DNA of 64,000 nt from Mytilus galloprovincialis (lineage: Eukaryota > Mollusca > Bivalvia > Mytilida > Mytilidae): the NCBI RefSeq assembly GCF_965363235.1, contig NC_134845.1:82413913-82477912 (forward strand). Reading direction: 5' to 3'. The notes under the pieces are model-generated. The model ran no database searches, was not told the origin of the DNA, and was given only the letters and a program-made list of their open reading frames with translations. Shown one piece after another: positions 3,606-49,265 of the stretch (position 1 is its first letter; every line of letters starts with the position of its first letter). The position numbers and the translations under genes are program-made.

Positions 3606-6600
3606 ATGGTAAAAACTGTTCTACTCGTTTTGGTTCTGGCAATATCAATAATTCATTGTAAGCATGGTTTGTAATAATTATAAATAAATTTAAAAAAATG
3701 ATTGTCAAAGTGGACAGAGGTTAAATAAATTGTATTGGGAATGAATTACAAAATACAAGCATCATGTTTTATTTATGTCAAGTATGACACGGTTTTTAAC
3801 AAAAAATAATAAATGCACAAATGTTTCACATTAGTACACCACATACTCCTTTCAAATAAAAAAAGAAGATTTAATATGATTGCCAATGAGACAACTATAT
3901 GAGAGACCAAGAGACACAGAAATTGAAAGATATAGGTTACCGTACGGCCTACAAAAATTATCAAAGCCCATGCATGTTTCTTTTTCAGCAGTTGTTCTGT
4001 TTTATGATAATTGGATCAAAACTGCAATCGTAATGTAAATGGGTATTTTTCTGAAAAATTGTTAGGTCATTTCATGCCGAAATCTAAATCATATTGTAAA
4101 ATAGTGTTGTATTGATTTGTTTTTTTATTTTAATTTGCCATTTCAAAATCTAAAAGACTATGCGGAATCTGATTGTTCGTACACCAAAATGAAAATAACA
4201 TTACGTCATTGGTTTAATTTCCATTGTTTAGAATTTGTTTAAGCAATCACAATATTTTGGTGTACGATTTAAAAATAGTTACCACGAATGCATAAGATTC
4301 TGAAACGGCGAATTAATTTATTGAGGTTAACTATTTATTTTCATTCTTTTTTTTTTTGGAAAAGGGGGGGGGGATACAAGCACATAATATTATTAAAATG
4401 CTCAACAGAAATAATAAGCACTGGATGATATTTGAAATTTATTGATCGTGTTTAAGTATATGACATGTGGATTCGTGTTTTTAATTCTTTTTTTTCTGTG
4501 AAAAGATTTGTGGATTTTGGATTGTTGTTTAATTTTTCGATGATTTTTTTCTCGTCGTTATCTTGAATATGTAGTTAAAACAGTTGATATATTAAACAAT
4601 AATATATAATATCTGTTAAAGATTTTTGTAGCATAGGGCTTTTTTCATATCGTGCTTATATTGATTTTCAATCTTATTTCTTATAAAATTACAGGCGAAC
4701 GAAACTTTGCATGTACCAAACGAGGTGGATACTGTTCAGACTCTGATACATGTACGTCATTAGGAGGTGAGGTGGAAAAACTATCTGTTAGGTGCAAGTG
4801 TGGGAAAGCATGTTGCAAATGTACTGGTAAGTAACGAATTTATTTCTGTCATTATCATCGTCGTATTTTTAACCGCAAATTCTATTCATTTTGAAGATAT
4901 TCTTTCAGACTATGCGATATGGGCTTTGTTCATTGTTGAAGGCCATATGGTGGTCTATAGTAGTTGGTTTATGTGTCATTGTGGTCTCTTGTGGAGAGTT
5001 ATCTCATTGGCAATCTTTTTTTATATGTCGTCCAAAATTTCAAAATATCTCAGATGATTGCAAAAAAGCAAAGGAAATAACTGTCATATTCCTTACTTGA
5101 AAAATGCAGTTTCCGACTAAATAAAGGCAACAGTAGTATACCGCTGTTCAAACTCATAAATCCATGAACAAAAAACAAAATCGGGGTAACAAACTAAACT
5201 TGAGGGAAACGCATGAAATATAAGAGGAGAACAACGACACAACACTACAATGTAACACACAGAGAAACGGACCAAGCATCAGACAAAATCCCAAGAGAAT
5301 AACAAATATAACATAAGAACCAACTACATGAATTTGGGATAGACAAGTACCGTGACACGTCTTATCGCAATGTGAATTTACACTCAAAAGTAAGAGAAAA
5401 CAAACGACGCAACGTTACAATGTAACATACACAGAAACGAACTATAATATAACAATGGCCATATTCCTGACTTGGTACAGGACATTTTCAAAGGATATAC
5501 CATAAAATATACCAGTCTTATGATTCCATTATTTATCAACAAAGCCGCTCGTCGCCAATTATGACTTATTTTAAAGGATTTTACCGTAAATATAGATAAC
5601 ACTTAAACGGTGTTCCATACATATAACGTTTTGATTTTCTATTTCTTACAACTGAAGAAAACCACAGTGTATGGGTATTTGTATCATGAATAGGAGTAGT
5701 ATAAAAATATTGTATTTCAATAAAAACAAAAACCGCCATATATACACAAACTTCATTCGTGTCTCCTATGCATTAGGGAAAATAGAAAAGGGAACTTGTT
5801 ACCCCCAGTAAAGCATTGAGTACATCTGAGTTCATGATTTAGTTTTTTTTCAGTCTTTTCATTTTAGTGTAGCTTTAGAAGACTGATGTTTTTGCTGAAT
5901 CTTGTTATCTTCTTTTTCTGTCATTTTGATATCTCTGTTTCTCCGAAATATGAATTTAGATATAGTAATGTTTTGTTTCATGTCTAATCATTCTCTGCTG
6001 TGAGAAATCTCATCACCGTGTTCTATTTCATTCCTAAACACATGTCCTGATGGCTCTACGTGTATGAGTGAAGGGGAAAACTGTGATGGTACCAAAGATA
6101 CAAACGGTTGTTGTGGTAACAGGTTTTGTTGTTTACCTACTCCAGTAACGATACCACCACCATGTAAGTTATATGGCTATAACAACTAATGATAAAAATG
6201 TAAACGAACATGTATTTTAAAGTGCAATTGATTGAAAAATAGTACTATAGACATACATAATCAATTTCGAAATATTTTATCAAAAACGCATATTTTTTAT
6301 TTAGTTTTTTCACTGAAATTTCTGCATATGTTTTGATTAGAATAGTTTTTGTGGAAACATACCTACTTTTTTCGTAGAACGATAGATATATAACAGTAGA
6401 TGAAAGATAAGAAGACAGACAACAGTAAAATTATGCTGTGCTAAAAATTTAATATTGTGATTAATTTACAGGTGTACCAGACTGTTTCATTCAATGTAAG
6501 GACTCTTGTAATATGGGCGAAAAAGAAATCGGAGCTGAGTGCTGTGGGTTGAAGTGTTGTACGTAAGTTAAAGTTAGAAGCAGGATTTTGACTATTTACA

Positions 6601-8813: not shown

Positions 8814-8874
8814 AGACACTGTTCTGAACGTTGATGCCAACAGAAGACAATTTTATTTGAAAATATCTAGTTAT

Positions 8875-8880
8875 AATAAA
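8875..8880 (+). terminator. Polyadenylation signal of copy 1
   Basis: A canonical AATAAA lies about 60 bases after the proposed stop codon at 8811-8813 and supports the tiny exon 5. Confidence 0.55.
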
Positions 8881-9361
8881 TTGATAAAAAAAAAATGTAT
8901 AATTTTGTTGTTGTTAGTATGACCATCAATGTTTCTCGAATAACATGAATAAATTTCGACCATAATTAAACACCAAAAAACGACATTGATATTTTAAACC
9001 CCTCAAAAAACAACACAAAACGGTTTATCTAGAAGTTATCGTAAATGCCATCTATTGGTTGTCCATTTCTAAGGCCTTCTCCACATTTTCTTACTTCAAA
9101 AATGCCATACATGAATTTGACTCTACCAGAAGCCAAGTACGTAGTCTTCAGCGATCCCTTAGCTTGTCAACAAAGAGGTTGCGACTTTATTGACTAGTGT
9201 TTTAAGCTTTCCAGCATAAAACCGATGGTTCTCTCCATGCATTCTGACTCTTTCCACTAATAAATAAAAGTTCGCCATGAAAGAGTGCTGAAAGTGAAAT
9301 TAAACAACCAACAATTAATAAAAAATTTATCGCGCTTGTGAATTGAAAAAGATAGCTGAAG

Positions 9362-13219: not shown

Positions 13220-15941
13220 TTGGTATGCATGCTTTCCTTTGTTCTGAAACATTTTGCTGTTAAAGTTTTGTCAGATTTCATTGTTGAAAGAGGTATGGAA
13301 ATTGACATTTTGGAAGCCACAAAAGATGAAATCGCAAACTTATTGCAAGATTTTTATGCCAACATCCGAAATAAAAGTCAAAAATATTACAAGAAAAATA
13401 CTCTTCTAGCCATACGACAGAGCATAAATAGATATCTGAAGGAGAACGACAGGTTTTTTGACATCATAACCGACCCCGAATTTACCCGAGCGAACGGCAA
13501 CTTTACTTCCCTACTCAGGAAAACGAGAGAAGAGGGAAAAGGAACTGTTACCCACCATGAGGCTATCTCCCTAGAGGATTTGAGAATGCTTTATGAACAC
13601 CCACTAGTTTTTAACACGTCAACTCCCCAGGGCCTTCTAAATAAAACTATATTCGAGACAATCTTATATTTCTGCAGAAGGGGTCAAGAAAATCTCTCAC
13701 AATTGAAGGTTGATGAATTTAAAGTTGACTCGGATCAAAAAGGGCAGATGTATGTCCGTAAACTTACAACAGAACTAACAAAAAACCACCAAGGTACTAC
13801 AAATGAGCCAGAGGGTTCAGGGGGAATGATGTATGCTACTGGCACAGATAGATGTCCTGTTAAGTCTTTTGTAAAATATCTAAAGAAACACAATAACGCA
13901 AGCAATAGATTATTCTTGCATCCAAAGAATTCATTCAGTGAACAAGATGATATGTGGTTCAGAAATGAACCAATTGGACAGAACACCATAAAAGTGTTTA
14001 TGAAGAATTTGTCGAAGTCAGCAAAATTATCTAGAGAATACACCAACCACTGTATCCGGTCAACATGCATAACCTTGCTGGACTATAGTGGCTTCCAATC
14101 CCGTCACATCAAGACTATCAGTGGACACAGAAATGAGGCATCTTTATCAAGCTATTGTTATGATACTTCAGGTAAATGCTATACACAAATATTTAATATT
14201 CATTGTGCAATTGCTAAAATTTTATTACAGTTATTTAAGGAATGACTAATATTTTTTCTGTCTATGAAGAAATAACATAAAAAATGTGGTATATTACAGT
14301 CATTTCTTATAATTTAATTCTAAATTTCATTTCAAACCGTAGAAAACCATGAAAAAAGGTTGACGTCACGGTCACATGACTAAATTATGTCTATGGGCTG
14401 ATAACAAAATAACGTCAGCCAATCAGAAGATGCGTTACATCCAAAATTAAATTATATCTATATATATCTTATGCAGTACATCATTTGTACATATAATAAC
14501 AAAAATATACATTGAATTACAACAATATTGTAAGAATATTTCTGCTTTTAATATCATAATTGAGTTTATCCAAAATTTGTATGTAAAATCTCAAAAAGGT
14601 ATTGGGTTTAATGTGTGAAATGACTGAGTACAATATTTATATATTCTTTATTCTAATGACTATTCTTGTACATTTCTTTATTTTATTGTGCATGTTTATA
14701 AATTAATTTTACTGTCTGTCAATCATTTTCTGAACTCATATAAATGCTTTCATTGTTTTTTTATAAATACATTTCAGATAAACAGAAAAAGAGTATGTCT
14801 GATGCATTAAGTAAATGTACCTATGGCACATTACAACAGACAGAAAGTAGGAGTGTAACTAGTAAGTATAATCATGTAAACTATAAAATTAAACAAAATA
14901 ATCAAAGAAATGCAAAGAAAAAATAACCTAGGAGAAATGCATGTATTTATCGTCTTGTTGGTACCATGAAATATAGCACACTACATTGTTGCATTGACTC
15001 CCCTCAAATATTATAGCACAATAAAATCACATCGAAAATTGTATTCTAATATTTGCCACTAAACTTGGGTTGTACTGTTTAAAGATACTGATAAGACAAC
15101 TTTTCATATGGCTCCTAAGTCCTTTTGTACATATAGTCTATATAATATATAAATAGTTCTCCTTACATGCAAGATAGTGTAAAAACAAACTGAATTCTTT
15201 TTATTACAGTTAGCTTGTCCCAGGAAAAGACTGTTTCTACCTTCACGTCGGATGAGAATGAACAGCCAATACCTCTACCAGTAATAGAGACTGTTTCTGC
15301 TGTTAGAAATAGTAAGAGACAAGGTATTTTTTTTTGTATTCAGGTACTATTGAAATAGTATTAACTATTCAACATATATTTTGGGTCAACAACATGAAAT
15401 AAATGACAAAAGGTTTGTCACATAGTCTTCAACAATGAGATCTTCCTTAAAGTCACTCTCCTACATGTCCCGTTACATATAATGGAGTTCATGAACAAAA
15501 TGGCATTCAGGTGAATTAATTGCATATTTAACACATGTAAATACATTTATGTCTCAACATTCTTCAGTACATTTTAAAAATGAAAGTACGCTTTTACTTG
15601 TTTTTGATAGTACAAATGATGGTACCGCTGGATGTGTAAATATGGCCAAGAACTATTTGTGCAACTTTTTTTTATGTTCAACTAGAATAATTTGTTACCT
15701 AATAGTATTGGTACTTTGTTCACACTCAAAAGCTGACTTTATTTAAATTATTTCAGTTGAAACTGCACCATATGATCCAGATATCATTGACTTTTTGGGA
15801 CTACCTGATGATGTTTTGGTGGACTATTGCCAATCAGTCGAGAATTCTGACCACCAAATAAGTGCCCCAAAGCAAATGAAGATGATGCCATTGATGAATA
15901 TTTCAAATTGTACTGTTAATATCAACTATTACAATAATTGA
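13220..15941 (+). CDS. Tyrosine recombinase, Crypton/DUF3504 type
   Basis: Four exons join in frame with GT-AG borders: 13220-14171, 14778-14861, 15210-15323 and 15757-15941, giving up to 444 residues. Exon 1 holds a helical core-binding part (from about residue 30) and the catalytic domain. I can see a candidate first Arg in FCRRGQENL, an H-x-x-R box in NHCIRSTCI, a second His in SGHRNEAS and a candidate nucleophile Tyr in SSYCY, the R-H-R-H-Y pattern of tyrosine recombinases. The C-terminal exons are low complexity and end near NCTVNINYYNN, as in the large invertebrate family akin to ZMYM/QRICH1 proteins, which derives from Crypton DNA transposons. The first residues are unsupported: the N-terminal exon or exons are probably missing or unrecognised. 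No reverse transcriptase lies beside it, against a DIRS element. Intron 1 carries an inverted-repeat element. The block is absent from duplicated unit 2. Whether it is mobile or domesticated cannot be told here. Confidence 0.8.
14292..14458 (-). mobile_element. Inverted-repeat element, ATTACAGTCATT family
   Basis: Lies in intron 1 of the recombinase gene. Shares ATTACAGTCATT, the TGATTGGCTGACGTTATTTT segment (here on the minus strand) and GTCACATGAC with the elements at 54640-55240. Non-coding. Confidence 0.7.
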
Positions 15942-21369: not shown

Positions 21370-24300
21370 ATGCCTGGAAGCGGTCCACAGTATTACCCTT
21401 GCGTTCTATGCAATAAAAGAACTAAACCACATGAAAGAAGATCAATCAATAAATCTGTAGCAAATTTTTAAGCATTTGAAGAAGACTTTTTTGATAGCAC
21501 ATAAACAAGAAGACAAAATATGCAATACGTGTAGACACAAATACTATGTTCAGGAAACTAGACAATCCTCTGTTGTACAGCACATATTATCTGACGATGA
21601 AGATTATGCTCCACCAGCAAAACGTAGATCTACTGTTTTATCCAGTCCACCATCAGTATCTCTTTCAATACCTTCTACATCAAAAAGCCATTCATACTGT
21701 TTCATATGCAAAAATCCTGGACCAAAGCTAATTGTTGTTCCATCACAAGCACGATTTTCTGCATTTCTTCAAAAAGAGGTTATAATTCCTGCAGGATGTC
21801 GCTGTTGTCCGGGACATTTGACGGAAGATAATTTTACAGAAGATGCAATAACATGAATTAACACATGACATGGGCAAAATCTCTTTGTTCTTACTGTACT
21901 ATAATCTGGATAATGCACAGCAAAGGTGTGCATTAACTACCTCAGATCTACTGCACAGTTCAAATCTATTTTTACCTTTAGGGGCGGTTCCTAGATTTTG
22001 ACAGGGGCGTTATTCTATCAAATTAAAAAAAATATATCACCGAGTGTAGCGAGACTAAAACAATATTGACGATTTTAAGGCAAAACACGTAGTTTCAAAA
22101 TAGGAAAAAACAAAGGTTTCTCATTTCTTTTTTTCATCTTACCTTGAACATTAAATTTTTATTATATTTTGCGTACAACATAAATCTTAAATTAGTGTTT
22201 TAAAACCAGAAGAAAGATAGTTAAAACAATTTTTGGTCATTTCCGCCAAAAAAGAAATGTAGCTAAGAATATCCGAATAAAAGAAATCTGATTTGGATTA
22301 GTTTTAGACTCAATGGAATTTATAACGACTTTTTCAATATCTATTCCCTATATTTTTGGATCGAATTTAAAGGGGTCATATTTAAGTTTGTTTTAAAACA
22401 AGGAGATTAGCTGGAGATCAATCAGACTTCATTTAGATGGACGTGTTTTAAAAATTAATACAGTAGATACAAAGAAATTTGGGGGAGGGGGAGGAAAAGA
22501 TTGGAAAGAGAAACGTATTTTCTGTTTATTCAACATTTAAAATTTAGGTAATATAACATCTTCCTCGGTTTATCTTTCTCTATTGAAGCATATCATTGAT
22601 TGAAAGAAATTCAAAAGCAATTAATCTAAACTCAATAACCCTTTCAGTTATGATTTTTTTTTCATACAACGATTTGAAAGTACTCAATTTGTCAAAGTCT
22701 TAATCGTCACTTATTAAATAAAAAAATGGGAATAGATTAAACAGAAACATTAAGAAAAAATCTGCCATTAAATCGCAAAAGTCTAAACCCCAAAAAAGTT
22801 GTCAATTTAAAACTTACCAATGAAAGTCGTATTTCCCCCTTTCTTAGGATCCGTGGATTGCGGAAAATCGTCCACATCTAAAACATTCACGTAAATTAAT
22901 GACGTCATGTGTTAAAACAGTTATTGGGCCAATCAAATCGGTATATAGAATTTAATCTGCACGCGCTCAGGATGACCCTTTAACCCGAACTCCTACGTCG
23001 TTCGGGTTAATAAGGGTCACCTGAGCTGTGCAGATTAAATTCTATATACCGACTTGCTTGGTCAATAACTATAACTAAGTAAAATAAACTGTACAAATGA
23101 TAATGTCATCCTTAACAGATCTACAATTATGGATCTTTTGAAGAAGTTAAGATACACAGCCTTACAAAATGAACAATCAAGAATTGACTTTGATACAGAT
23201 AAAGTGTTATCTGACTCTGACTTTATCAATTTAACCGGTATAAATAAGGACAATTTTAATGATCTTCATTCCTACATCAAAAATATAGTAAGAAATACAC
23301 CTACACGAAGCACAAGAACTTCTCTTAGAATTTTCCTTTTTAAATTAAAATCTGGAATTTCAAATAAAGTGCTATCTACCATTTTCAACATATCAAGATC
23401 AAGTTTACGCCGAGGTATTTCATGTGTCAGACAAGCTTTAGTTAAGAATTTCGTACCTGAAAATTTGGGTTTTAATCACATCAGCCATGATGAAGTCGTT
23501 AATCTGCACACACGACCACTAGCTCAGACTTTATTTGGGGATGGAACAAACAAACAGGCCGTCTTAGTGCTTGATGGCACCTATATGTATATTCAGAAAA
23601 GCGGAAATTTTCATTTTCAAAGACGGTCATATAGTTTACACAAGGGACGACCGCTTGTTAAACCAATGGTAGTTGTTACTACTACAGGGTACTTTGTGAC
23701 TGTTCTTGGACCATACATGGCCGACTGCAAAAATAATGATGCGGCAATCCTCAAACATATGTTTAACACAGATGTAGAAGATATCAAAGAATGGCTACAA
23801 GACAATGATATATTTGTAGTTGACAGAGGAGTCAGGGACTCATTGGAGCTTCTTGATGATTTGGGGATAAAGGCACAGATGCCAAGCTTTTTAACGAAAG
23901 GCCAAAAACAGATGACAACAGATGAAGCCAATGCAAGCAGATTAGTTACTAAGGTTTGTACCCCTACAGCCAAAATACTGTAGTATAATTCTCAAAACAA
24001 ATTTTGAAACAGCGTCACTTTATATATAGTATTATGTTAAGATATTTTTATCGCTACACATAAAATGCTCTTATTCATACGAAGCACACCCAACTCACAT
24101 ATGCACATAGTTAGTTACTACTAAGACTATGACTATTGTGCCACTAATAAAAATAAAGAAAAGTAACTTATAGGACTGCGTATTTTTAGTTTTCCCCTAT
24201 GAAGTTTTTTTACACATAAATATCAATTAAACAAACCAATAACGAAAAAAAGGTAGCACACCTTCCATAAACGTTTTATATTCTTCACACGTGACGGTAT

Positions 24301-29982: not shown

Positions 29983-32900
29983 ATGCTAAAAACTGTTCTA
30001 CTCGTTTTGGTTCTGGCAATATCAATGATTCAATGTAAGCATGGTAAGTGTTTATTTCTAATGATTTTGTTATAATAATAAAACGATAGATAAAGTAGAC
30101 AGAGTGAAATGAATAAAAAAAAACCAAGTATCATGATTTATTTTTGTCAAGTATGACACGGTTTTAAAAATATATATGGAATTCACATATGTTTTACACA
30201 CCACGTACTACCAATTTGTAATACTTTAAAATAAAAAAAAGATATAGTATGATTGGTAATTCGACAACTCCCAGAGAGAATGAACGACAAAATTATATAT
30301 AACTATAGGTCACCGTACTGCCTTCCAAAATTAGCACAGGCCATATATGTTTCTTTATTAGCAGGCAGTTGTTTCCTTTTATGATAAATTGATGCATTAG
30401 ATTCTGAAACGCCGATTTATTGAGATTAACTATTTATCATCATCCTTTTTTGGCGGCGAAAACACAAGAACATTACAGTATTTACATTTTCAACAGAAAT
30501 GTGAAGCACTGGACGATATTCAAAATTTATTGATCTTGTTTTATTTGATGATTTGTGCTTTTCAATTCTTATTTTTCTGTGAAATGATTTGTAGATTTTG
30601 GATTGTTGTTTGATTTTTCGATGATTTTCTTCTCGTCGTTATCTTGAATATGTAGTTAAAACAGTTGATATATTAAAGAATAATATATAATATCTGTTAA
30701 AGATTTTTGAAGTATAGGGTTTGAAGAAAAGTAGACTTTTTTCATATCATGCTTATATCGATTTTCAAACTTATTTCTTATAAAATTATAGGCAAACAAA
30801 ACTTTGTATGTACCAAACAAGGCGGATATTGTTCAGACTAGAATACATGTCCTTTCTCAGGAGGCGAGGTGGAAAAACTATCTGTTAGGTACAAGTGTGG
30901 GAAAGCATGTTGCAAATGCACTGGTAAGTAATGAAATGTTTTCAGTCATTATCGTCGTTATCATCGTCGTATTCTTTAACCGACCGACATAACTATTGTC
31001 AGGGTCTTTATACAAGTGATAGACAAAAAAGCTGTATAACATAATGAAGATATGCTATGTCTTTTTTCAAAAATTCTGAGATGATTGCAAAAAAAGTCTA
31101 TAAAAACTGCTGAAACAAACGCTCGACTAATAGTATATCAATCAACGGAATCACCGAAAGATAACTGTCAGATTCCTCACTTGAAAAATGCATTTTTCCG
31201 ACTAAAATATACCAGTCTTATGATTTCATTATTTATCAACAAAACCGGTCGTCACCAAATATGACTTATTTTAAAGAATTGTATTGTAAACATAAATAAC
31301 ACTGAAACGGTGTTCTATACATATAGGTATTAGATTTTCTATTTCTTACAACTAAAGAAAACCACGGTGTATGAGTATTTTGTTCATGAATAGGAGTAGT
31401 ATCAACATATTGTATTTCAATAAAAACAAAAACCGTCATATATACACAAACTTCATTCGTTTCTCCTATTATGAGGGAAAAGAGAACCAGGAACCTGTTA
31501 CCTCCAATAAAGAATTGAGTACATCTTATTTTATGATTTAGGTTTTGTTTTCAATCCTTTCATTTGAGTGTACCTTTAGATGACTGATGTTTTTGCTTAA
31601 TCTTGTTATTTTCTTTTTCTGCCATTTTGATATCTCCATCTGTTTCTCCGAAATATAAATTTAGATATAGTAATTAAAACGTTTAGCTGACTTTACAGAG
31701 TTATCTCCCTGTAGTGTTAGGTACCACCTTAAGATACATTAATGTTTTGTTTCATCTCTTATCTTTCTCTGCTGTGAGAAATCTTTTCATCGTGTTCTAT
31801 TTTATTCCTAGACACATGTCCTGATGGTTCTACATGTACATGTATGAGTGAAGGTGAAACCTGTGATGGTACCAAAGATACAAACGGTTGTTGTGGTAAC
31901 AGGTTTTGTTACCTACTCCAGTAACGATACCACCACCATGTAAGTTATATGGCTATAACAAATAATGATAACAATAATGATAAAAATGTAAACGAACATG
32001 TATTGTAAGCGCAATTGATTGAAAAATAGTACTGTAGACATACATAATCAATTTCGAAATGAATTTATCAAAAAACGCATATTTTTTTTTAGTTCTTCAC
32101 TGAAATTTCTGCATATGTTTTGATTAGAATAGTTAGCTGAGCGCTGTGGGTTAAGGTGTTGCGCGTAAGTTAAAGTTAACAGCATAATTTTAACACGACG
32201 GGTGCCGTATACGGTGCAGGAAATGTTTACCCTTCCGGAGCACCTGATTTCATTCCCGGTTTTAAGTGGAGTTTGTGTTGTTTGTCATTTATTATTTATG
32301 TTTACTGTTGATGTAAATGCCCCTTGGTTTCGTGAGTCTTTGTTTACTCCTTGGTTTTGATTGTTAATGTCTTTCGTGCATACAATACACCAATCTTGTT
32401 CAGTAACGTCAACAATTACGCTCTAAGTGAGTAAACACAAATGTTGATATGTACTATGCTCAATACTATAAACTGATAGATTGAAATGGGAAGTATTTAC
32501 AGAATAATTATACATTATGTACAATCATTTTAACAGAAGACCCAAACACTGAGCATGTTGAGATAAGTGGAAATAAACATATCCAAATATATGACGTTAA
32601 ATTCAGACATATACTAGACAATTTATTGTCCTGTTCAGAAAACGAGCTGCAAATTGGTTCCCCCAAACACAGCTTTTATAAATGTGTCTATCAAGTACAT
32701 GATTAGCGGTTGTCTCTGGTTGTATCTTCGTATGGTAGTTTTGGAAGATACAAATGATTCAAAAGATTTTAAAGCCTCTTTCAAAAAAATCTCATTTCGT
32801 TAAAAGACGTCGTTTTACATGAGCTTTACATATTTACCTATCGATTATATTTAACTCATCGATGTATTATCCATACGCCCATTAATCAATAGCTAAATGT

Positions 32901-34544: not shown

Positions 34545-34775
34545 TATGTACAAGTTATACCTTAAGTCACTTCTTGTGTATGATTGATAGAACAAGTTAT
34601 ATCCTGACGTTACTTCTTGTGTATGATTGATAGTAAAAGGTATATTTGAAAGTAACTTCTTTGGTATGATGGATTGTACAAATTATATCCTAAAGTCTCT
34701 TCTTGTAAAGATTGATGGTACAATTGAAATTCTGACGTCACTTCATGTGTATGGTGGATAAAACTTAAGTCACTT
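34545..34775. repeat. Minisatellite downstream of copy 2
   Basis: Short, degenerate array of the same unit (about five copies) at the same place relative to the gene as array 1. No clear 169-base higher-order period remains. Confidence 0.75.
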
Positions 34776-42308: not shown

Positions 42309-45300
42309 ATGGGAAAAACTACTCTGGTGGTTTTGTTTGTGGCAATAACAATGATTAATCAGTATAAAGGTAAGTGTTAATTTTTCAGGACTTTTTAATA
42401 ATAATAAAAGAAGTTTACAAATATACATCGATGTAGGTAGAGGTTGTTACATTCGCATACCTCAAATTTGTAAAACTTCCATGTTCAATTTCTCAACGGC
42501 CGTTAAATAATTGATAGTCTTTGAGGGATATGCCTTTTGGGGTGTGTCGTGTAGTTTATTTGTTATATTTTTGTGAAGTGATTTTGTGGATTGTTTCTTG
42601 TTTTCGACGCTTTACTTCTGGTTTGAAAGATAATGAATTTAGCCAAAATTGGAATTCTATCGAAAGGAAAGTGTTGTTCAGTATGGCTTTTCTAAAACCT
42701 ATCAATTTGATGGGTGAAAAAATTATTTTCATCCTATTTTTACGAAACACTAACACATTACTGTGTCAAAATGTTCTTCAACATAAATTGTTAACACATA
42801 GCACATTTATAATTTATTTTATTGTTGTGAAATAATTAAAAGTCTTTAAAAAAATTGATTTTTTTTTTGGGGGGGGGAGGGTCTTATTGCTATTTTTTTA
42901 TAAGTGATTTTGTGATTTTTTTTCGTCGTTTTATCTAGTTAAAGCAGTGATTCATTTTACAAGAATATAATATGTTACATATTAAAGATTTTTATTTACC
43001 TAACTCTAAAATAATTTGTTATGAAATTACAGGCGAACCGAACGTTGCATGTACCGGTCGAGGTGGATATTGTTCCGATTCTAATAGATGTTCATCATCA
43101 GGAGGTTATGTGGAAAAACTAACTTTTAAGTGCAAATGTGGTATTGCATGTTGCAAATGTACTGGTAGGTAACGAACTCATTTAAGCAATAATATTTCAT
43201 GTATACCGACTGGTATGATTATTGCTCAGGCCTATTTGCTAGTCATGAATACAAATTTGAGAGAAAAAAAAACTGTACGCATACGCAAAATTGATTCATT
43301 TGGAAAATATTCTGTGTGGTCCAAATTTTCAACAACTATTCTGAATGAATTGAAAATAAACTAAACATAGATACCAGGACTAAATTTTGTATATACACCA
43401 GACGCGCGTTTCGTCTTCAAAAGACTCATCAGTGACGCTTGAATACAAAAACGTTAGAAAAAAAAAAATAAAGTCCAAAGTTGAAGAGCATTGAGATTCA
43501 AAATTCCTAAAAGTGTTGCCAAATACAGCTAAGGTAATCTATGCCTGAGGTAGAAAAGCCTCATTATTTCAAAAAATTCAAAATTTTGTAAACAGTTAAT
43601 TTATAAATATAACAATATCAATGATAATTCATGTCAGCACAAAAAGTGCTGACTACTGGGCTTGTGATACCCTCGGGGAAATAAATCTCCACCAGCAGTG
43701 GCATCGACCAAGTAAATAAGTTCCATGACATAGAATATTTCGAAATACTTTTTTTTCACAAATATATCTAATAAATCATTGTGAATACACATACAGATCT
43801 TGTGTTTTTTTCCTTCCTTTTTTTATACATGACTTTTCCTGAATCCACTCCGCTATCGATATGATCATATGATCCGTGTTCCATTTATAGTTGGTCACGG
43901 TGCTTCTTCATCAAACATGTGAGAATAGACTTTATTTCTCTACACTATAAATTAATCATCGTGAAGGTACATGTATATCTTGTTTTTTGCATAATGTTTG
44001 TGAATCACACAATATGAAATCTAAATATACCGTATATTACATGTCGTGACTTGACCTATCATGGTTTACTTTTATGACTTGTTTCTTTCAACGCTATTCC
44101 CTATGTACAATTTCATTCTTTAATTGACCCTTTTTAATTTTTTTCATTCCAGCGTCACTGATGAGTAGTTTGTAGACGAAACGCGAGTCTGGCGAACACA
44201 TTTGTAATCATGGTATGTTTTATGGGTTTATTACATATAACTCATCATACATGTAGATACCAGGAATAACATTTAACGCGCGTTTCGTCTACAAAAGACT
44301 CATCAGTGACGCTCGAATAAAAAATCTTATAAAGGCCAAATAAAGTACGAAGTTGAAGAGCATTGATACCACTATAAGGATGTCACAAGTAGAAATGGAT
44401 TTGATTATCTATTCCTTAGCAATGCAGGAAAACCCCGGGGAAGTTTGTTTTATGATTAAAACACATATCAACAACGCATCTTATAGCAATACAAACGAAA
44501 ACCGTCCCATATCAACAAACTTCACTCAAACAGGTATTCCATTATTTCTCCGTATTCGAGTTATAATAAATGTATCAGAATATGTTTATCCACCTAAGCA
44601 ATTGATTACATCTCTGTTTACGATGAAAGTCTTTTTTTCGATGAAACTCTAGAGCACTGGTTTATTAGACTTTTGTAACCCTTTTTTGCCAGTTTGGTAT
44701 CTCTGCTTCTTTAAAATATGAATTTAAATTTCTTTTTAATTTATCACAAAGCAGTCTCTGCTGTGATCAACCTGTTAATCACTCATCCGTTTATTCATAG
44801 ACACATGTTCTGATGGTTCTACATGTATGAATGACGGTGAAACATGTAATGGAATAAAAGATACAAACGGATGTTGTGGCACCAGGTTTTGTTGTACACC
44901 TATTATGAAAACAACACCTGAACCAACGACACCTATAATAACAACAACACCTATTATGACAACGACACCTGAACCGTGTAAGTAATTTACATGTAGCTTT
45001 CACAGATAATAAAAAAAATGATATGCGGAACATTTATAATTAATCATAATTTACTGAAAAATAGTCTACTTTCTAATCTTTGAAAAGTTCCAACAGAATC
45101 GATTATACATGATCCTAGGTTTTTATCAATTAAAAGTTGTACGTCTCAAAACGTCCCGAAAGATCGACCTCAGGTGATCCATGATCCTGGGTCGTTATCA
45201 CTGAGAAGGTTGACGTTATGGGTGTTGCAGTTCTAGTTCGTTTTATAAGCTCTAAAAATGAAAACACGTTATCAATTTCATGCGTCCGAAGTGATTTTTG

Positions 45301-47107
45301 GATTTACCTTCATCAGGAACGCTCAACGCCGAATATTTGAAAGGCAAGGACATATAAGAACCGGAAACATTGAAGAGCTATAAACCAAAAATCTAAATAT
45401 TCAATATAAGGTCGTCAGTTATAGCAAAAAATATAGACCATTTGAAATAAATGATAATGACAACTACTAACTTAAAATCAGAAATATGAGAATAACATGA
45501 CTTATCCAACTCGGGTTCATTTTTTTTTTGGGGGGGGGGGGGGGTGACTTTTTAATAAGATGAGAACAAATGGGCTGATATTGATACAAAATTATAAATC
45601 ATTTAATATGTGATATGTCTACTGGTTGACTGTAAGTTGTTGAGGGTTTCATCAGACCCGTAGTTCAACACTTCTAGACTGGCATGACAATATGGATATA
45701 TTGGTTTTATTGAAATTTGTTGTAGTTATAAATAAAATAACAAAAAAATATTTTTGAATAAAACAAAATGTGTCTCTCTCATACACCGCTCTTAATCCAT
45801 GTCCGCGTTTGTAAATACAATGGTACTTTTTAATATAATAGTTTTCAAAAAATGTATTAAGATTTTGAAATTTCAAATCTTATGACTTCCAATTTCACTG
45901 AGGAGACATTAATTGAAGAAATGCACATCGGAAGCTGTGCAAACAGGTTACGTGCCGTTACTGTTATTAAATTAAGTCAATAAGATAAAAAGCAAGTCAT
46001 CAAGTGTGTTATTTTACAGGTGTACCAAACTGTGCTGGGACTTGTAGGAACAAGTGTATACGTGGTGAAGATTTTTCTTATTCAGGATGCTGCGGATTGA
46101 AATGTTGCATGTAAGTTTAAGTTAGGGTGGTACAAATTATCTTGACTAAAGTCAATTTGGCTCGTTTAATTTTCATAAAATTTTATAAATACATATAATT
46201 TGACCTTTTGACAAAAGTATAAACATTTCAGAAATTTGAATCACACACTTCATCGAAAAAAAATCACTGTTCAGAAACGAGCCGCAAATTGTCTCCCAAA
46301 TCTTTGTTAGTTAAAAAAAAAATTAAAAATATGCCTGTCATAAACATCGATCATTAGCGGTTGTCTATTACCGTATCTTCGTGTGGTAGTTTTAGGAATT
46401 GAAGATTATTCAAAACCTTAGAAGGCCTCGGTTGAAAAAAATCACATTTGGTTTAAAGCCGTGGTTATTTAAAGTTTGACATAATCGTTGTATTATCCAT
46501 ATCAATTAATAGCTGAATCGAGTATTTCGTTCAAATGATGTATAGAAACAAAAATTACAAATAAAGCTCTGATTAAAATAAAACGACATTTTCAAGTTCC
46601 AAAGTAATAATTTTATATCAATACAATTCACATTTCACCAGTTACCCCGAATGAAACCCTGTTATTTGTAATTTTCTCGGTTTTACATGTATTGGTTCAA
46701 CGTGTCAATATGCTTTTGAATTGAAAAGTGTGTGCAAAGCCAAACTACAAATTTATATAAAAGTCATTTCTTCGACAAGTTATGCATGTTTAAAATTCAA
46801 TCAAAACAAGCTTAATAAAATGCTTGATTTTTTTGTTTTAGTTTAAACGTAAATACTTAATTTACTTTATAGTCATTGATAAACTATATATATTATGAAC
46901 TGCATGTCCTTAAACGTTTGATGAGCTCTTCATATTTTAATGTTGTTTTTTTTTTTTTATTTTCAAATTTTTGGGCTTCAAGCAACACTGCAAACATTTT
47001 AAATTAGCATTCGCACCCATTGCGCTGAGTGCAGTAAAATTTTAACAGGTACAGTTATTATAAATTAACGAAAACAATCTTTTTATTTCAGTTATAATGA
47101 TGACTGA
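42309..47107 (+). CDS. Three-module cysteine-rich secreted peptide, copy 3
   Basis: The most complete member: 158 residues from five exons at 42309-42369, 43033-43164, 44801-44977, 46020-46110 and 47092-47107, all with GT-AG borders and in frame. Exon 1 gives a signal peptide (MGKTTLVVLFVAITMINQ). Module A keeps all eight cysteines and the same spacing as copy 1. Module B (C-x5-C-x6-C-x8-CC-x4-CC) is followed by a Thr/Pro-rich linker of about 25 residues with repeated TTP units, which could carry O-glycans; this linker is much longer than in copy 1. Module C is C-x3-C-x3-C-x3-C-x10-CC-x3-CC. The protein ends KCCIYNDD. An AATAAA follows the stop. There is no transmembrane segment after the signal peptide, so a secreted disulphide-rich peptide is expected; a defence role is inferred from mussel peptide families. 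I do not recognise a named family for the whole layout. Confidence 0.85.
43365..43720 (+). mobile_element. Dispersed repeat (family D)
   Basis: In intron 2 of gene copy 3: ACGCGCGTTTCGTCTTCAAA to GGCATCGACCAAGTAAATA. Confidence 0.7.
44150..44370. mobile_element. Two facing family D end fragments
   Basis: 44155-44220 (minus) and 44250-44370 (plus) both carry the GACGAAACGCG/CATCAGTGACGCT end and face each other in intron 2 of copy 3. Confidence 0.6.
45120..45440. repeat. Dispersed repeat (family G) in intron 3 of copy 3
   Basis: TTGGATTTACCTTCATCAGG, AACGCTCAACGCCGAATATT and GCAAGGACATATAAGAACC look like a relative of family D ends. No second copy is in the window, so this rests on recognition only. 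Confidence 0.35.
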
Positions 47108-47152: not shown

Positions 47153-47158
47153 AATAAA
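47153..47158 (+). terminator. Polyadenylation signal of copy 3
   Basis: AATAAA lies 45 bases after the stop codon of copy 3, fitting a short 3' UTR. Confidence 0.6.
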
Positions 47159-47589
47159 ATGATTAAAAATGGTATAATATTGTTGTTGTGCGTAAAAAAA
47201 TCCGCATAGAAACCACAGGGATACTTCAAACTCAAAACGCACAGATACAAAACGGTTCATCTAGAAATAATCGTATGCCGTTTATTGTTGTCCATTGCTA
47301 CGTCCTTCTTTGCCATATTTTACTTCTAAAATGCCATACCGTATTTCGTTTCAAGCTACAGTGATCTCACACTGGTGTTGTGAGTTTGATTGCCAGTTTG
47401 GGATAAGGTTAGTTTGACTCATATCTTAACTAAATAGGTTTGCTAGTTTCCCATTAGAAAGTTCTTTTCGGGCATTCCGACCATCTCTTCTAATAAAAGT
47501 ACTGCCCACAATGATATACACACTAGTGGTGAAAGCGAAATTTATGACCAATAAAAAATAAAGGAATTATAGTAATGATAGCTGAGACC

Positions 47590-49000
47590 TATCTGAGTAC
47601 AAGTAATGCTATAAGTCTCTTCGTGATTGTGATGGACAGTACACGTTATATCATTACGTTACTTCTTGTGTAAGTTATATTCTTATGTCACTCTTGTGTA
47701 TGATTAATAGTATAAGTTATATTTATACGTCAACACTTGTGTATGATTGATAGTACAAGTTATATTCGTACGTCAATACTTGTGTATGATTGATAGTACA
47801 AGTTATATTCTTACGTCAACACTTGGATATGATGGATAGTACTAATTATATTCTTACGTCAACACTTGTGTATGATTGATAGTACAAGTTATATTCGTAC
47901 GTCAACACTTGGATATGATGGATAGTACTAATTATATTCTTACGTCAACACTTGTGTATGATTGATAGTGCAAGTCATATATCACCCCTAGTTTTTGGTG
48001 GGGTTCGTGTTGTTTATTCTTTAGTTTTCTATGTTGTGTCATGTGTACTATTGTTTGTCTGTTTGTCTTTTTCATTTTTAGCCATGGCGTTGTCAGTTTA
48101 TTTTAGATTTATGAGTTTGACTGTCCCTTTGGTATCTTTCGTTCCTCTTTTATATGCTTACGTCAACACTTGTGTATGATTGATAGTACAAGTCATATTC
48201 GTATGTCAACACTTGTGTTAGATCGATAGTACAAATTATATTATTACGTCAACACTTGTGTAGAATGGATAGTACAAGTTATATGCTACGTCAGCAATTG
48301 GATATGATGGATAGTACAAATTATATTCTTACGTCAACACTTGTGTATGATGTATAGTACAAGTAATATGCTACGTCAACAATTGGATATGATAGATAGT
48401 ACAAATTATATGCTCACGTCAACACTTGAGTTAGACCGATAGTATAAGTAATATTCGTACGTCAACACTTGTGCATGATGTATATTACAAGTTATATTCT
48501 TACGTCAACACTTTTGTATGATGTATAGTACAAATTATATTGATACGTCAACACTTGTGTATGATTGATAGTATAAGTTATATTCGTACGTCAACACTTG
48601 TGTATGATGTATAGTACAAATTATATTCTTACGTCAACACTTGTGTATGATTGAAAGTACAAGTGTTACCATAAAATCACTTGTTACAAGTTATATATTG
48701 AACTCAATTCTTGTGTATGATGGAATGTACAAGTTTCACCCTAAAGCCACTTCTTGTGTATGATTGATAGAACAAGTTATATAATAAAATCACTTCTTGT
48801 GTATGATTGATAGAACAAGTTATATAATAAAAAAATATTGTGTATGATTGAAAGTATACAAGTCTTACCCTAAATTCACTTCTTGTGTTTGATTGATAAT
48901 ACAAGTTATATTCTTACGACAACACTTGTGTTTGAAAGATAGTACAAGTTTCACCCTAAAGTCATTTCTCGTGTATGGTGGATAGTAGAAGTTATATGCT
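47590..49000. repeat. Minisatellite downstream of copy 3
   Basis: The longest of the three arrays: about 25-30 units of roughly 43 bases with TACGTCAACACTTGTGTATG, a GATTGATAGT spacer and ACAAGTTATATTC. It is split by a retroelement 3' fragment at 47975-48158. The later units, from about 48700, drift toward the version found at copies 1 and 2. Confidence 0.85.
47975..48158 (+). mobile_element. Retroelement 3' tail inside the minisatellite
   Basis: A 5'-truncated family A tail (from TTTTTGGTGGGGTTCGTGTT to CGTTCCTCTTTTAT) interrupts array 3, with normal units on both sides. Confidence 0.7.
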
Positions 49001-49004
49001 ACAA

Positions 49005-49265
49005 GTCTGTGCGTCCGTCCGTTCGTTCGTTCGTCTGTCCCGCTTCAGGTTGAAGTTTTTGGACGAGGTAGTTTTTGATGAAGTTGAAGTCTAATTAACT
49101 TGAAACTTAGTATACATGTTCCCTATTATATTATTTGCCTAAATTTAATCCCATTAGAGTTTTTGCTCATTTTCATGGTCCACTGAACATAGAAAATGGT
49201 GGTGCGGATTAGGCATCCATTTACTATGGACACATTCTTGTTATTAGTTATTTCTACCTGCTAGC
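49005..49265 (+). mobile_element. Dispersed repeat (family F)
   Basis: GTCCGTCCGTTCGTTCG repeats, CTGTCCCGCTTCAGGTTG, AACTTGAAACTTAGTATACA and CATTTACTATGGACACATTC. Very common bivalve-type repeat; follows array 3 directly. Confidence 0.65.

What the first reader, a model, noticed from the sequence alone, without database searches (positions are those of the whole stretch)
42309..47107. A five-exon gene built of three different cysteine-rich modules, each on its own exon
Seen: copies 1 and 3 join across five exons in one frame, with conserved cysteine spacing in modules A, B and C. The intron before A, between A and B, and between B and C all fall in phase 1, the pattern of exon shuffling. 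Known: mussels carry many families of disulphide-rich defence peptides, usually with one cysteine domain each. Inference: a composite peptide with three distinct folds, possibly a family not yet named. This is my best candidate for something undescribed.
Basis: partly seen in the sequence, partly recalled or inferred. Interest (0 to 1): 0.75.

Follow-up and report, generated by a model that had tools for sequence, protein, structure and literature searches.

The report
Mussel three-module defensin-like gene family
A mussel gene joins three small disulphide-rich modules, each on its own exon, into one secreted protein; it belongs to a family of about nineteen loci and may be a chain of defensin-like units, a design described in birds and lizards.

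Summary
The five-exon gene at 42309-47107 is real: its exons join in one frame (158 codons, intron phases 1-1-1-2, GT..AG sites). The window's own genome, probably a Mytilus (myticin genes), holds 20 neighbouring module A + module B units at 19 or 20 loci. A third cysteine-rich exon was found at 15 of 19. A and B are under purifying selection; outside its cysteines C changes about as fast as silent sites (pN/pS 0.98 against 0.45 and 0.43).

No Pfam or NCBIfam family matches. Weak hints point to the beta-defensin (trans-defensin) fold: A's model draws 7 of 8 PDB hits from beta-defensins (three distinct proteins), B's model only crotamine, C of copy 3 a sub-threshold ovodefensin match. None is significant, and profiles show no homology among the modules. 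Best reading: an invertebrate 'polydefensin' with a conserved A-B pair and a fast-evolving third module, probably a secreted defence protein. The predicted mature protein is slightly acidic, against a classical cationic peptide. Expression is untested.

The parts
42309..42369 (+). copy 3 exon 1: signal-like peptide, phase 1 donor GTAAGT
   Evidence: exon 1 homologue seen at 11 other loci
43033..43164 (+). copy 3 exon 2: module A, 8 Cys, net charge +3
   Evidence: selection
44801..44977 (+). copy 3 exon 3: module B, 7 Cys, net charge -3, followed by a T/P-rich linker
46020..46110 (+). copy 3 exon 4: module C; its first Cys comes from a codon split over the B/C junction
   Evidence: fast evolution
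47092..47107 (+). copy 3 exon 5: last residues (YNDD) and stop TGA
   Evidence: similar starts at 5 of 11 other loci examined
47153..47158 (+). AATAAA, possible poly(A) signal of copy 3
3606..3666 (+). copy 1 exon 1, donor GTTTGT (non-consensus)
4695..4826 (+). copy 1 module A
6038..6163 (+). copy 1 module B; acceptor reads AA instead of AG
6472..6562 (+). copy 1 module C
8871..8900 (+). copy 1 likely exon 5 (begins TTATAATAA; end not settled)
29983..30043 (+). copy 2 exon 1 (pseudogene)
30792..30923 (+). copy 2 module A, with an internal stop codon
31812..31935 (+). copy 2 module B, frameshifted (end approximate)

Best explanation
Copy 3 is an intact-looking member of an unnamed mussel family of proteins made of three disulphide-rich modules. 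Shown: gene structure, family, pairing of A and B, contrast in selection. Inferred: each module takes a beta-defensin-like (trans-defensin) fold, so the product is an invertebrate polydefensin. The conserved A-B pair would be the constant part (A mostly cationic, B mostly acidic), tethered, often by a T/P-rich and perhaps O-glycosylated linker, to the fast-evolving module C, which would meet a changing target. Likely role: host defence at a mucosal or haemolymph surface, by multivalent binding of microbes more than by charge-driven lysis.
For: Gene structure. 20 neighbouring A-B units. A and B distances correlate over 14 genes (r 0.86, 1 of 5000 permutations as high). In seven matched genes pN/pS outside conserved Cys codons is A 0.45, B 0.43, C 0.98; C exceeds A in 99.5% and B in 99.55% of 2000 bootstraps. 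Best model of A: short helix and three strands; 7 of 8 PDB hits are beta-defensin chains. Model of B: three strands; only hit crotamine, TM 0.66/0.57; that crotamine has the beta-defensin fold is recalled. C of copy 3: only Pfam match Meleagrin/Cygnin, E 0.035. AvBD11 (Gallinacin-11) is both a fold hit of A and a very weak profile hit (E 9.2). Six-cysteine spacing with usual beta-defensin ranges (recalled): 13 of 14 A, 10 of 12 C; shuffles of the first row fit in 1.0% and 0.4%, or 3.3% and 3.6% with the last CC fixed. B fits only a relaxed pattern, 16 of 16, against 0.9% or 3.8%. A phase I intron before the cysteine region is shared by big defensins and beta-defensins (PMC7203481, passages).
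Against: No fold hit is significant (best E 0.92 for A, 7.2 for B); A's seven beta-defensin chains are only three proteins (hBD-1 mutants, hBD-2, AvBD11). For A one model of five has pLDDT above 50, and each model used two sequences. A's two best PDB profile hits are nanobodies; C's are an insulin-like peptide and a pollen allergen. Meleagrin matches 1 of 12 C modules, E 0.12 for the trimmed one. A, B and C profiles align only over short stretches, at best 9 columns, probability 32%. B fits 0 of 16 with the usual spacing and also hits knottin toxins and an LDL-receptor repeat (E 8e-4). The narrower avian ranges are not met by A. Pfam Defensin_beta and Meleagrin list no family locus in the genome, nor does Defensin_big, though that search also missed the big defensins expected in Mytilus, so it has little power. 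The predicted mature protein is net -1, pI 5.4. The relaxed spacing was set after seeing the data. No expression evidence.
Confidence: 0.45

Rival explanations
1. Three unrelated small folds (A defensin-like, B a knottin or LDL-receptor-A-like module, C something else) put together by exon shuffling into a secreted defence or toxin-like protein.
For: Profiles of A, B and C do not match each other. B hits knottin spider toxins (Covalitoxin-I and ADO1; Toxin_34 for 4 of 16 rows) and an LRP2 LDL-A repeat at E 8e-4. The 5' borders of A, B and C are phase 1 in copy 3.
Against: No convincing A or B module outside the family in searches that score only the best candidates. The model of B resembles crotamine, weakly. 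All 42 aligned modules carry a relaxed six-Cys spacing, chosen after the fact. PF00057 (LDL-A) is not listed for B.
Confidence: 0.3
2. A secreted structural or matrix protein (mucus, egg coat, shell or byssus) that uses the modules as disulphide-locked building blocks, with no direct antimicrobial role.
For: Slightly acidic predicted mature protein with 23 cysteines, an odd number that could allow cross-linking; T/P-rich linker of variable length.
Against: Fast evolution of one module only and a large dispersed family with several broken copies, more usual for defence genes (general knowledge).
Confidence: 0.17
3. A protease inhibitor or venom-like toxin family.
For: Disulphide-rich modules; weak profile hits of B to spider toxins.
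Against: No inhibitor family was listed in the Pfam scans; mussels have no venom apparatus (general knowledge).
Confidence: 0.06
4. A decaying pseudogene family with no protein product.
For: Copies 1 and 2, L041, L053 and L055 carry lesions.
Against: 14 of 19 loci show no visible lesion in A or B; pN/pS well below 1 in A and B.
Confidence: 0.02

Closest known systems
Avian double beta-defensin AvBD11
   Same: More than one beta-defensin unit in one chain, each on its own exon; units differ in cysteine spacing and charge; first unit begins Cx6Cx5C as module A does (PMC9138766, passages)
   Different: Two units, not three; a bird protein; no positive selection detected there; the mussel modules have extra cysteines and a longer third interval in A
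Lizard polydefensins such as Gila monster helofensin
   Same: Several defensin units in one chain (PMC9138766, passages)
   Different: Four units thought to come from internal duplication; the mussel modules show no sequence homology to one another by profile
Big defensins
   Same: Trans-defensins present in bivalves, with a phase I intron before the cysteine region (PMC7203481, passages)
   Different: One defensin unit after a hydrophobic domain; copy 3 has no such domain between signal-like peptide and module A
Mussel CRP-I (sCRP-I and mCRP-I)
   Same: Mytilus family of cysteine-rich peptides, some with several cysteine arrays (PMC10138031, passages)
   Different: Knottin array C-C-CC-C-C; all arrays in one final exon; dibasic propeptide cleavage site
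Ovodefensins (Pfam Meleagrin/Cygnin)
   Same: Spacings Cx5Cx3Cx11Cx3CC and Cx3Cx3Cx11Cx4CC are near module C; sub-threshold Pfam match of copy 3's C
   Different: 14.4 bits against a cut-off of 25; 1 of 12 C modules matches

Membership tests
Trans-defensins (beta-defensin fold) | Six cysteines in beta-defensin spacing, modules A and C | tested here: met
Trans-defensins (beta-defensin fold) | Six cysteines in beta-defensin spacing, module B | tested here: not met
   0 of 16 with the same ranges; 16 of 16 only with a pattern relaxed after the fact
Trans-defensins (beta-defensin fold) | Three-stranded antiparallel sheet | tested here: inconclusive
   Three strands in the best models of A and B; hits mostly beta-defensin chains but none significant; C not modelled
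Trans-defensins (beta-defensin fold) | Disulphide pairing 1-5, 2-4, 3-6 | not testable with these tools
   No model coordinates were in the box; no chemistry possible
Trans-defensins (beta-defensin fold) | Match to a Pfam defensin family at its cut-off | tested here: not met
Trans-defensins (beta-defensin fold) | Phase I intron before the cysteine region | tested here: met
   literature
Polydefensin | Two or more defensin units in one open chain | tested here: inconclusive
   Three modules in one spliced frame, but the defensin nature of each is only suggested
Big defensin | Hydrophobic N-terminal domain before one defensin unit | tested here: not met
   Exon 1 codes only for a short signal-like peptide and module A follows
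Mussel CRP-I | C-C-CC-C-C knottin array(s) in a single last exon | tested here: not met
   Different arrays on separate exons; definition
LDL-receptor class A | Match to Pfam PF00057 | tested here: not met
   PF00057 not listed for any of 16 B modules; one PDB profile hit, E 8e-4

The most novel reading that the evidence does not exclude
Mussels have their own polydefensins: a dispersed family in which a conserved pair of defensin-like exons is coupled, often by a T/P-rich linker, to a third defensin-like exon that evolves near-neutrally or under diversifying selection and can be replaced or lost. My ten paper searches found no polydefensin outside vertebrates, so it may be the first such family, and it would allow a test of what linking defensin units gains.
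Probability: 0.36. Interest if true: 0.72.

Novelty: new variant of a known kind. Interest (0 to 1): 0.55.

Why it matters
Why some lineages link defensin units is called an open question in the AvBD11 paper, which treats such proteins as rare in vertebrates (passages). A multi-copy mussel family with intact and broken copies, apparent two- and three-module loci and one fast-evolving module would give many natural comparisons. It also adds a family, undescribed as far as my searches show, to the many mussel cysteine-rich proteins.

Tried and rejected
Searched without a decisive result: Pfam and NCBIfam with the whole protein and modules (NCBIfam is made for bacteria and archaea); PDB sequences with the protein and three profiles; papers for peptide strings (0 papers), linked defensins (2 papers), tandem defensin domains in mussels (0 papers), trans-defensins in mussels (5 papers, listing only). 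The LDL-A idea for B was set aside but not excluded. Homology among A, B and C was tested and not shown. A weak B-like hit on C6 (E 0.67; locus L056) found no support. The first module scan covered the window only, because loci are stored several to a file; it was repeated on all loci. The donor finder picked wrong places for exon A and was replaced.

Mended while checking this report: I first took L054 for one gene A-B-A-B plus a third module. A scan of the gap found a signal-like exon before the second unit (donor GTTTAA, weak), so it may be two genes; I withdrew the duplication claim and lowered the novel reading from 0.38 to 0.36.

Rows left out: alignments A1-A3 hold 14 A, 16 B and 12 C rows; broken or near-identical copies and L045's A were left out, though copy 1 and L053's B are in. 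Selection used 14, 14 and 8 rows and 7 matched genes, copy 1 among them. In A3 the first Cys of 11 rows was typed from the codon split over the B/C junction (row 12 begins at a Cys inside the exon), and the last Cys of four rows (L041, L042, L043, L047) assumes that exon 5 begins with T; invariance of those columns and the C spacing counts rest partly on this. The selection counts do not use these residues.
Full report
Observation. The window lies in a 1.38 Gb genome with 17 matches over the Pfam myticin cut-off, so Mytilus is the likely source; that myticins are known from Mytilus is general knowledge. At 42309-47107 five exons join in one frame into 158 codons with GT..AG introns of phase 1, 1, 1 and 2. 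Exon 1 codes for a signal-like peptide, exons 2 to 4 each for a cysteine-rich module (A, B, C), and exon 5 for the last residues and the stop. A possible poly(A) signal follows at 47153.

Family. Genome searches with the protein and single modules, which score only the best candidates, and a reading of the loci gave 20 A-B units. Counting the two neighbouring units of L054 as one locus, these are 19 loci: eight within about 0.3 Mb on contig C8 (three of them in the window), three elsewhere on C8, three on C5, two on C13, one each on C11, C3 and C14. Every A has a B downstream on its strand, in one case (C5, L048 and L049) about 7.5 kb away and assumed to be the same gene. The A donor is GT at the same phase-1 place in 20 of 20; the B acceptor is AG in 18 of 20, the exceptions being copy 1 (AA) and the truncated L041. 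A third exon of type C was found at 12 of 19 loci and a divergent cysteine-rich candidate at 3 more (L039, L046, L054). L050 and L051 seem to end inside the B exon, and none was found for copy 2 and L053 in the stretches scanned. Exon 5 is recognisable after its acceptor at 5 of 11 other loci examined: TTATAAT at four, TTATTAA at L045. L054 has two A-B units in a row and a third module after the second; a signal-like exon stands before each unit, the second with a weak donor, so one gene or two is open.

Condition of the copies. L041, L053 and L055 also carry lesions. Fourteen of 19 loci show none in A or B, although L045 has lost one Cys of A.

Selection. The median dN/dS is 0.26 for A (14 rows), 0.20 for B (14) and 0.61 for C (8), or 0.35, 0.34 and 0.97 without conserved Cys codons. 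In seven genes that have all three, pN/pS outside the conserved Cys codons is 0.45, 0.43 and 0.98, bootstrap 95% ranges 0.26-0.72, 0.27-0.69 and 0.70-1.36. The cysteines of C are largely kept while the rest changes about as fast as silent sites. Distances of A and B agree between 14 genes (r 0.86, 1 of 5000 permutations); A-C (r 0.65, 21 of 5000) and B-C (r 0.44, 218 of 5000) over 7 genes less so. These are small sets of related paralogues, so the permutation figures are rough.

What the modules are. No Pfam or NCBIfam family passes a cut-off. From two window sequences each, A was modelled as a short helix and three strands (best pLDDT 72, the other four models 38-49) and B as three strands (79, 78, then 57, 55, 51). 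Against the PDB, A drew eight hits, seven of them beta-defensin chains of three proteins (E 0.9 to 2.4), and B one, crotamine (E 7.2, rmsd 1.5 over 33 columns). C was not modelled; its only Pfam match is the ovodefensin family Meleagrin/Cygnin for copy 3 (E 0.035, below the cut-off; 1 of 12 rows). Beta-defensin cysteine spacing with wide, recalled ranges occurs in 13 of 14 A and 10 of 12 C but 0 of 16 B; a pattern relaxed after the data were seen fits all 42. Shuffles of the first row of each set fit in 0.4-1.0% (usual) and 0.9-2.4% (relaxed), or 1.8-3.6% and 3.8-9.1% with the last CC fixed. Each line is weak; that they point to one superfamily for three modules is the argument. Against it: the best PDB profile hits of A are nanobodies and those of C an insulin-like peptide and a pollen allergen; profiles of A, B and C do not align to one another beyond short stretches; B resembles knottin toxins and one LDL-receptor repeat as well; Pfam defensin models list no family locus in the genome, though one search also missed the big defensins reported for Mytilus and so has little power.

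How it may work. Inferred: the protein is secreted. In copy 3 module A carries +3 and B -3; over the rows counted A is +1 to +6 in 13 of 14 (-3 in L054), B 0 to -6 in 14, C +2 to -6 in 8. Assuming cleavage before residue 22, the mature chain is net -1 with pI 5.4 and 23 cysteines. A T/P-rich linker of variable length stands between B and C in several genes and would suit O-glycosylation. A constant A-B pair with a fast-changing C suggests recognition of changing targets, most likely microbes, more than lysis by charge. An odd number of cysteines would leave one free for a dimer or another link. None of this was tested.

Comparison and novelty. Linked defensin units are known as polydefensins in birds (AvBD11, two units on separate exons) and lizards (PMC9138766, passages). 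Big defensins, reported for Mytilus, have one defensin unit and a phase I intron before it (PMC7203481, passages). CRP-I peptides of Mytilus may have several knottin arrays, but in one exon (PMC10138031, passages). Ten paper searches showed no description of this family; the library holds open papers only, the other papers were seen as listings, and no transcript collection could be searched, so it may be known elsewhere. I rate it a new variant of a known kind, with membership in the trans-defensins plausible but not shown.

Noticed in passing
window 47586-49031: Array of about 43-bp repeats just downstream of copy 3, with two copies also at 34554-34734.
   Followed up: no
window 13220-14245 (+): ORF of 341 aa with DUF3504, QRICH1 and phage-integrase (tyrosine recombinase) domains over their cut-offs.
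   Followed up: partly
window 23129-23983 (+): ORF of 284 aa with DDE transposase similarity, just below the Pfam cut-offs.
   Followed up: partly
L054 1562-8700: Two A-B units in a row on the plus strand with a divergent third module after the second; a signal-like exon precedes each unit (1562 and 4432), so one five-module gene or two genes.
   Followed up: partly
L046, about 3470: The third-exon candidate codes for a quite different cysteine-rich module (C-x4-C-x5-CC-x3-C...) in place of module C; no Pfam match.
   Followed up: partly
L042, donor after module C: The donor reads GC instead of GT (GCAAGT).
   Followed up: no
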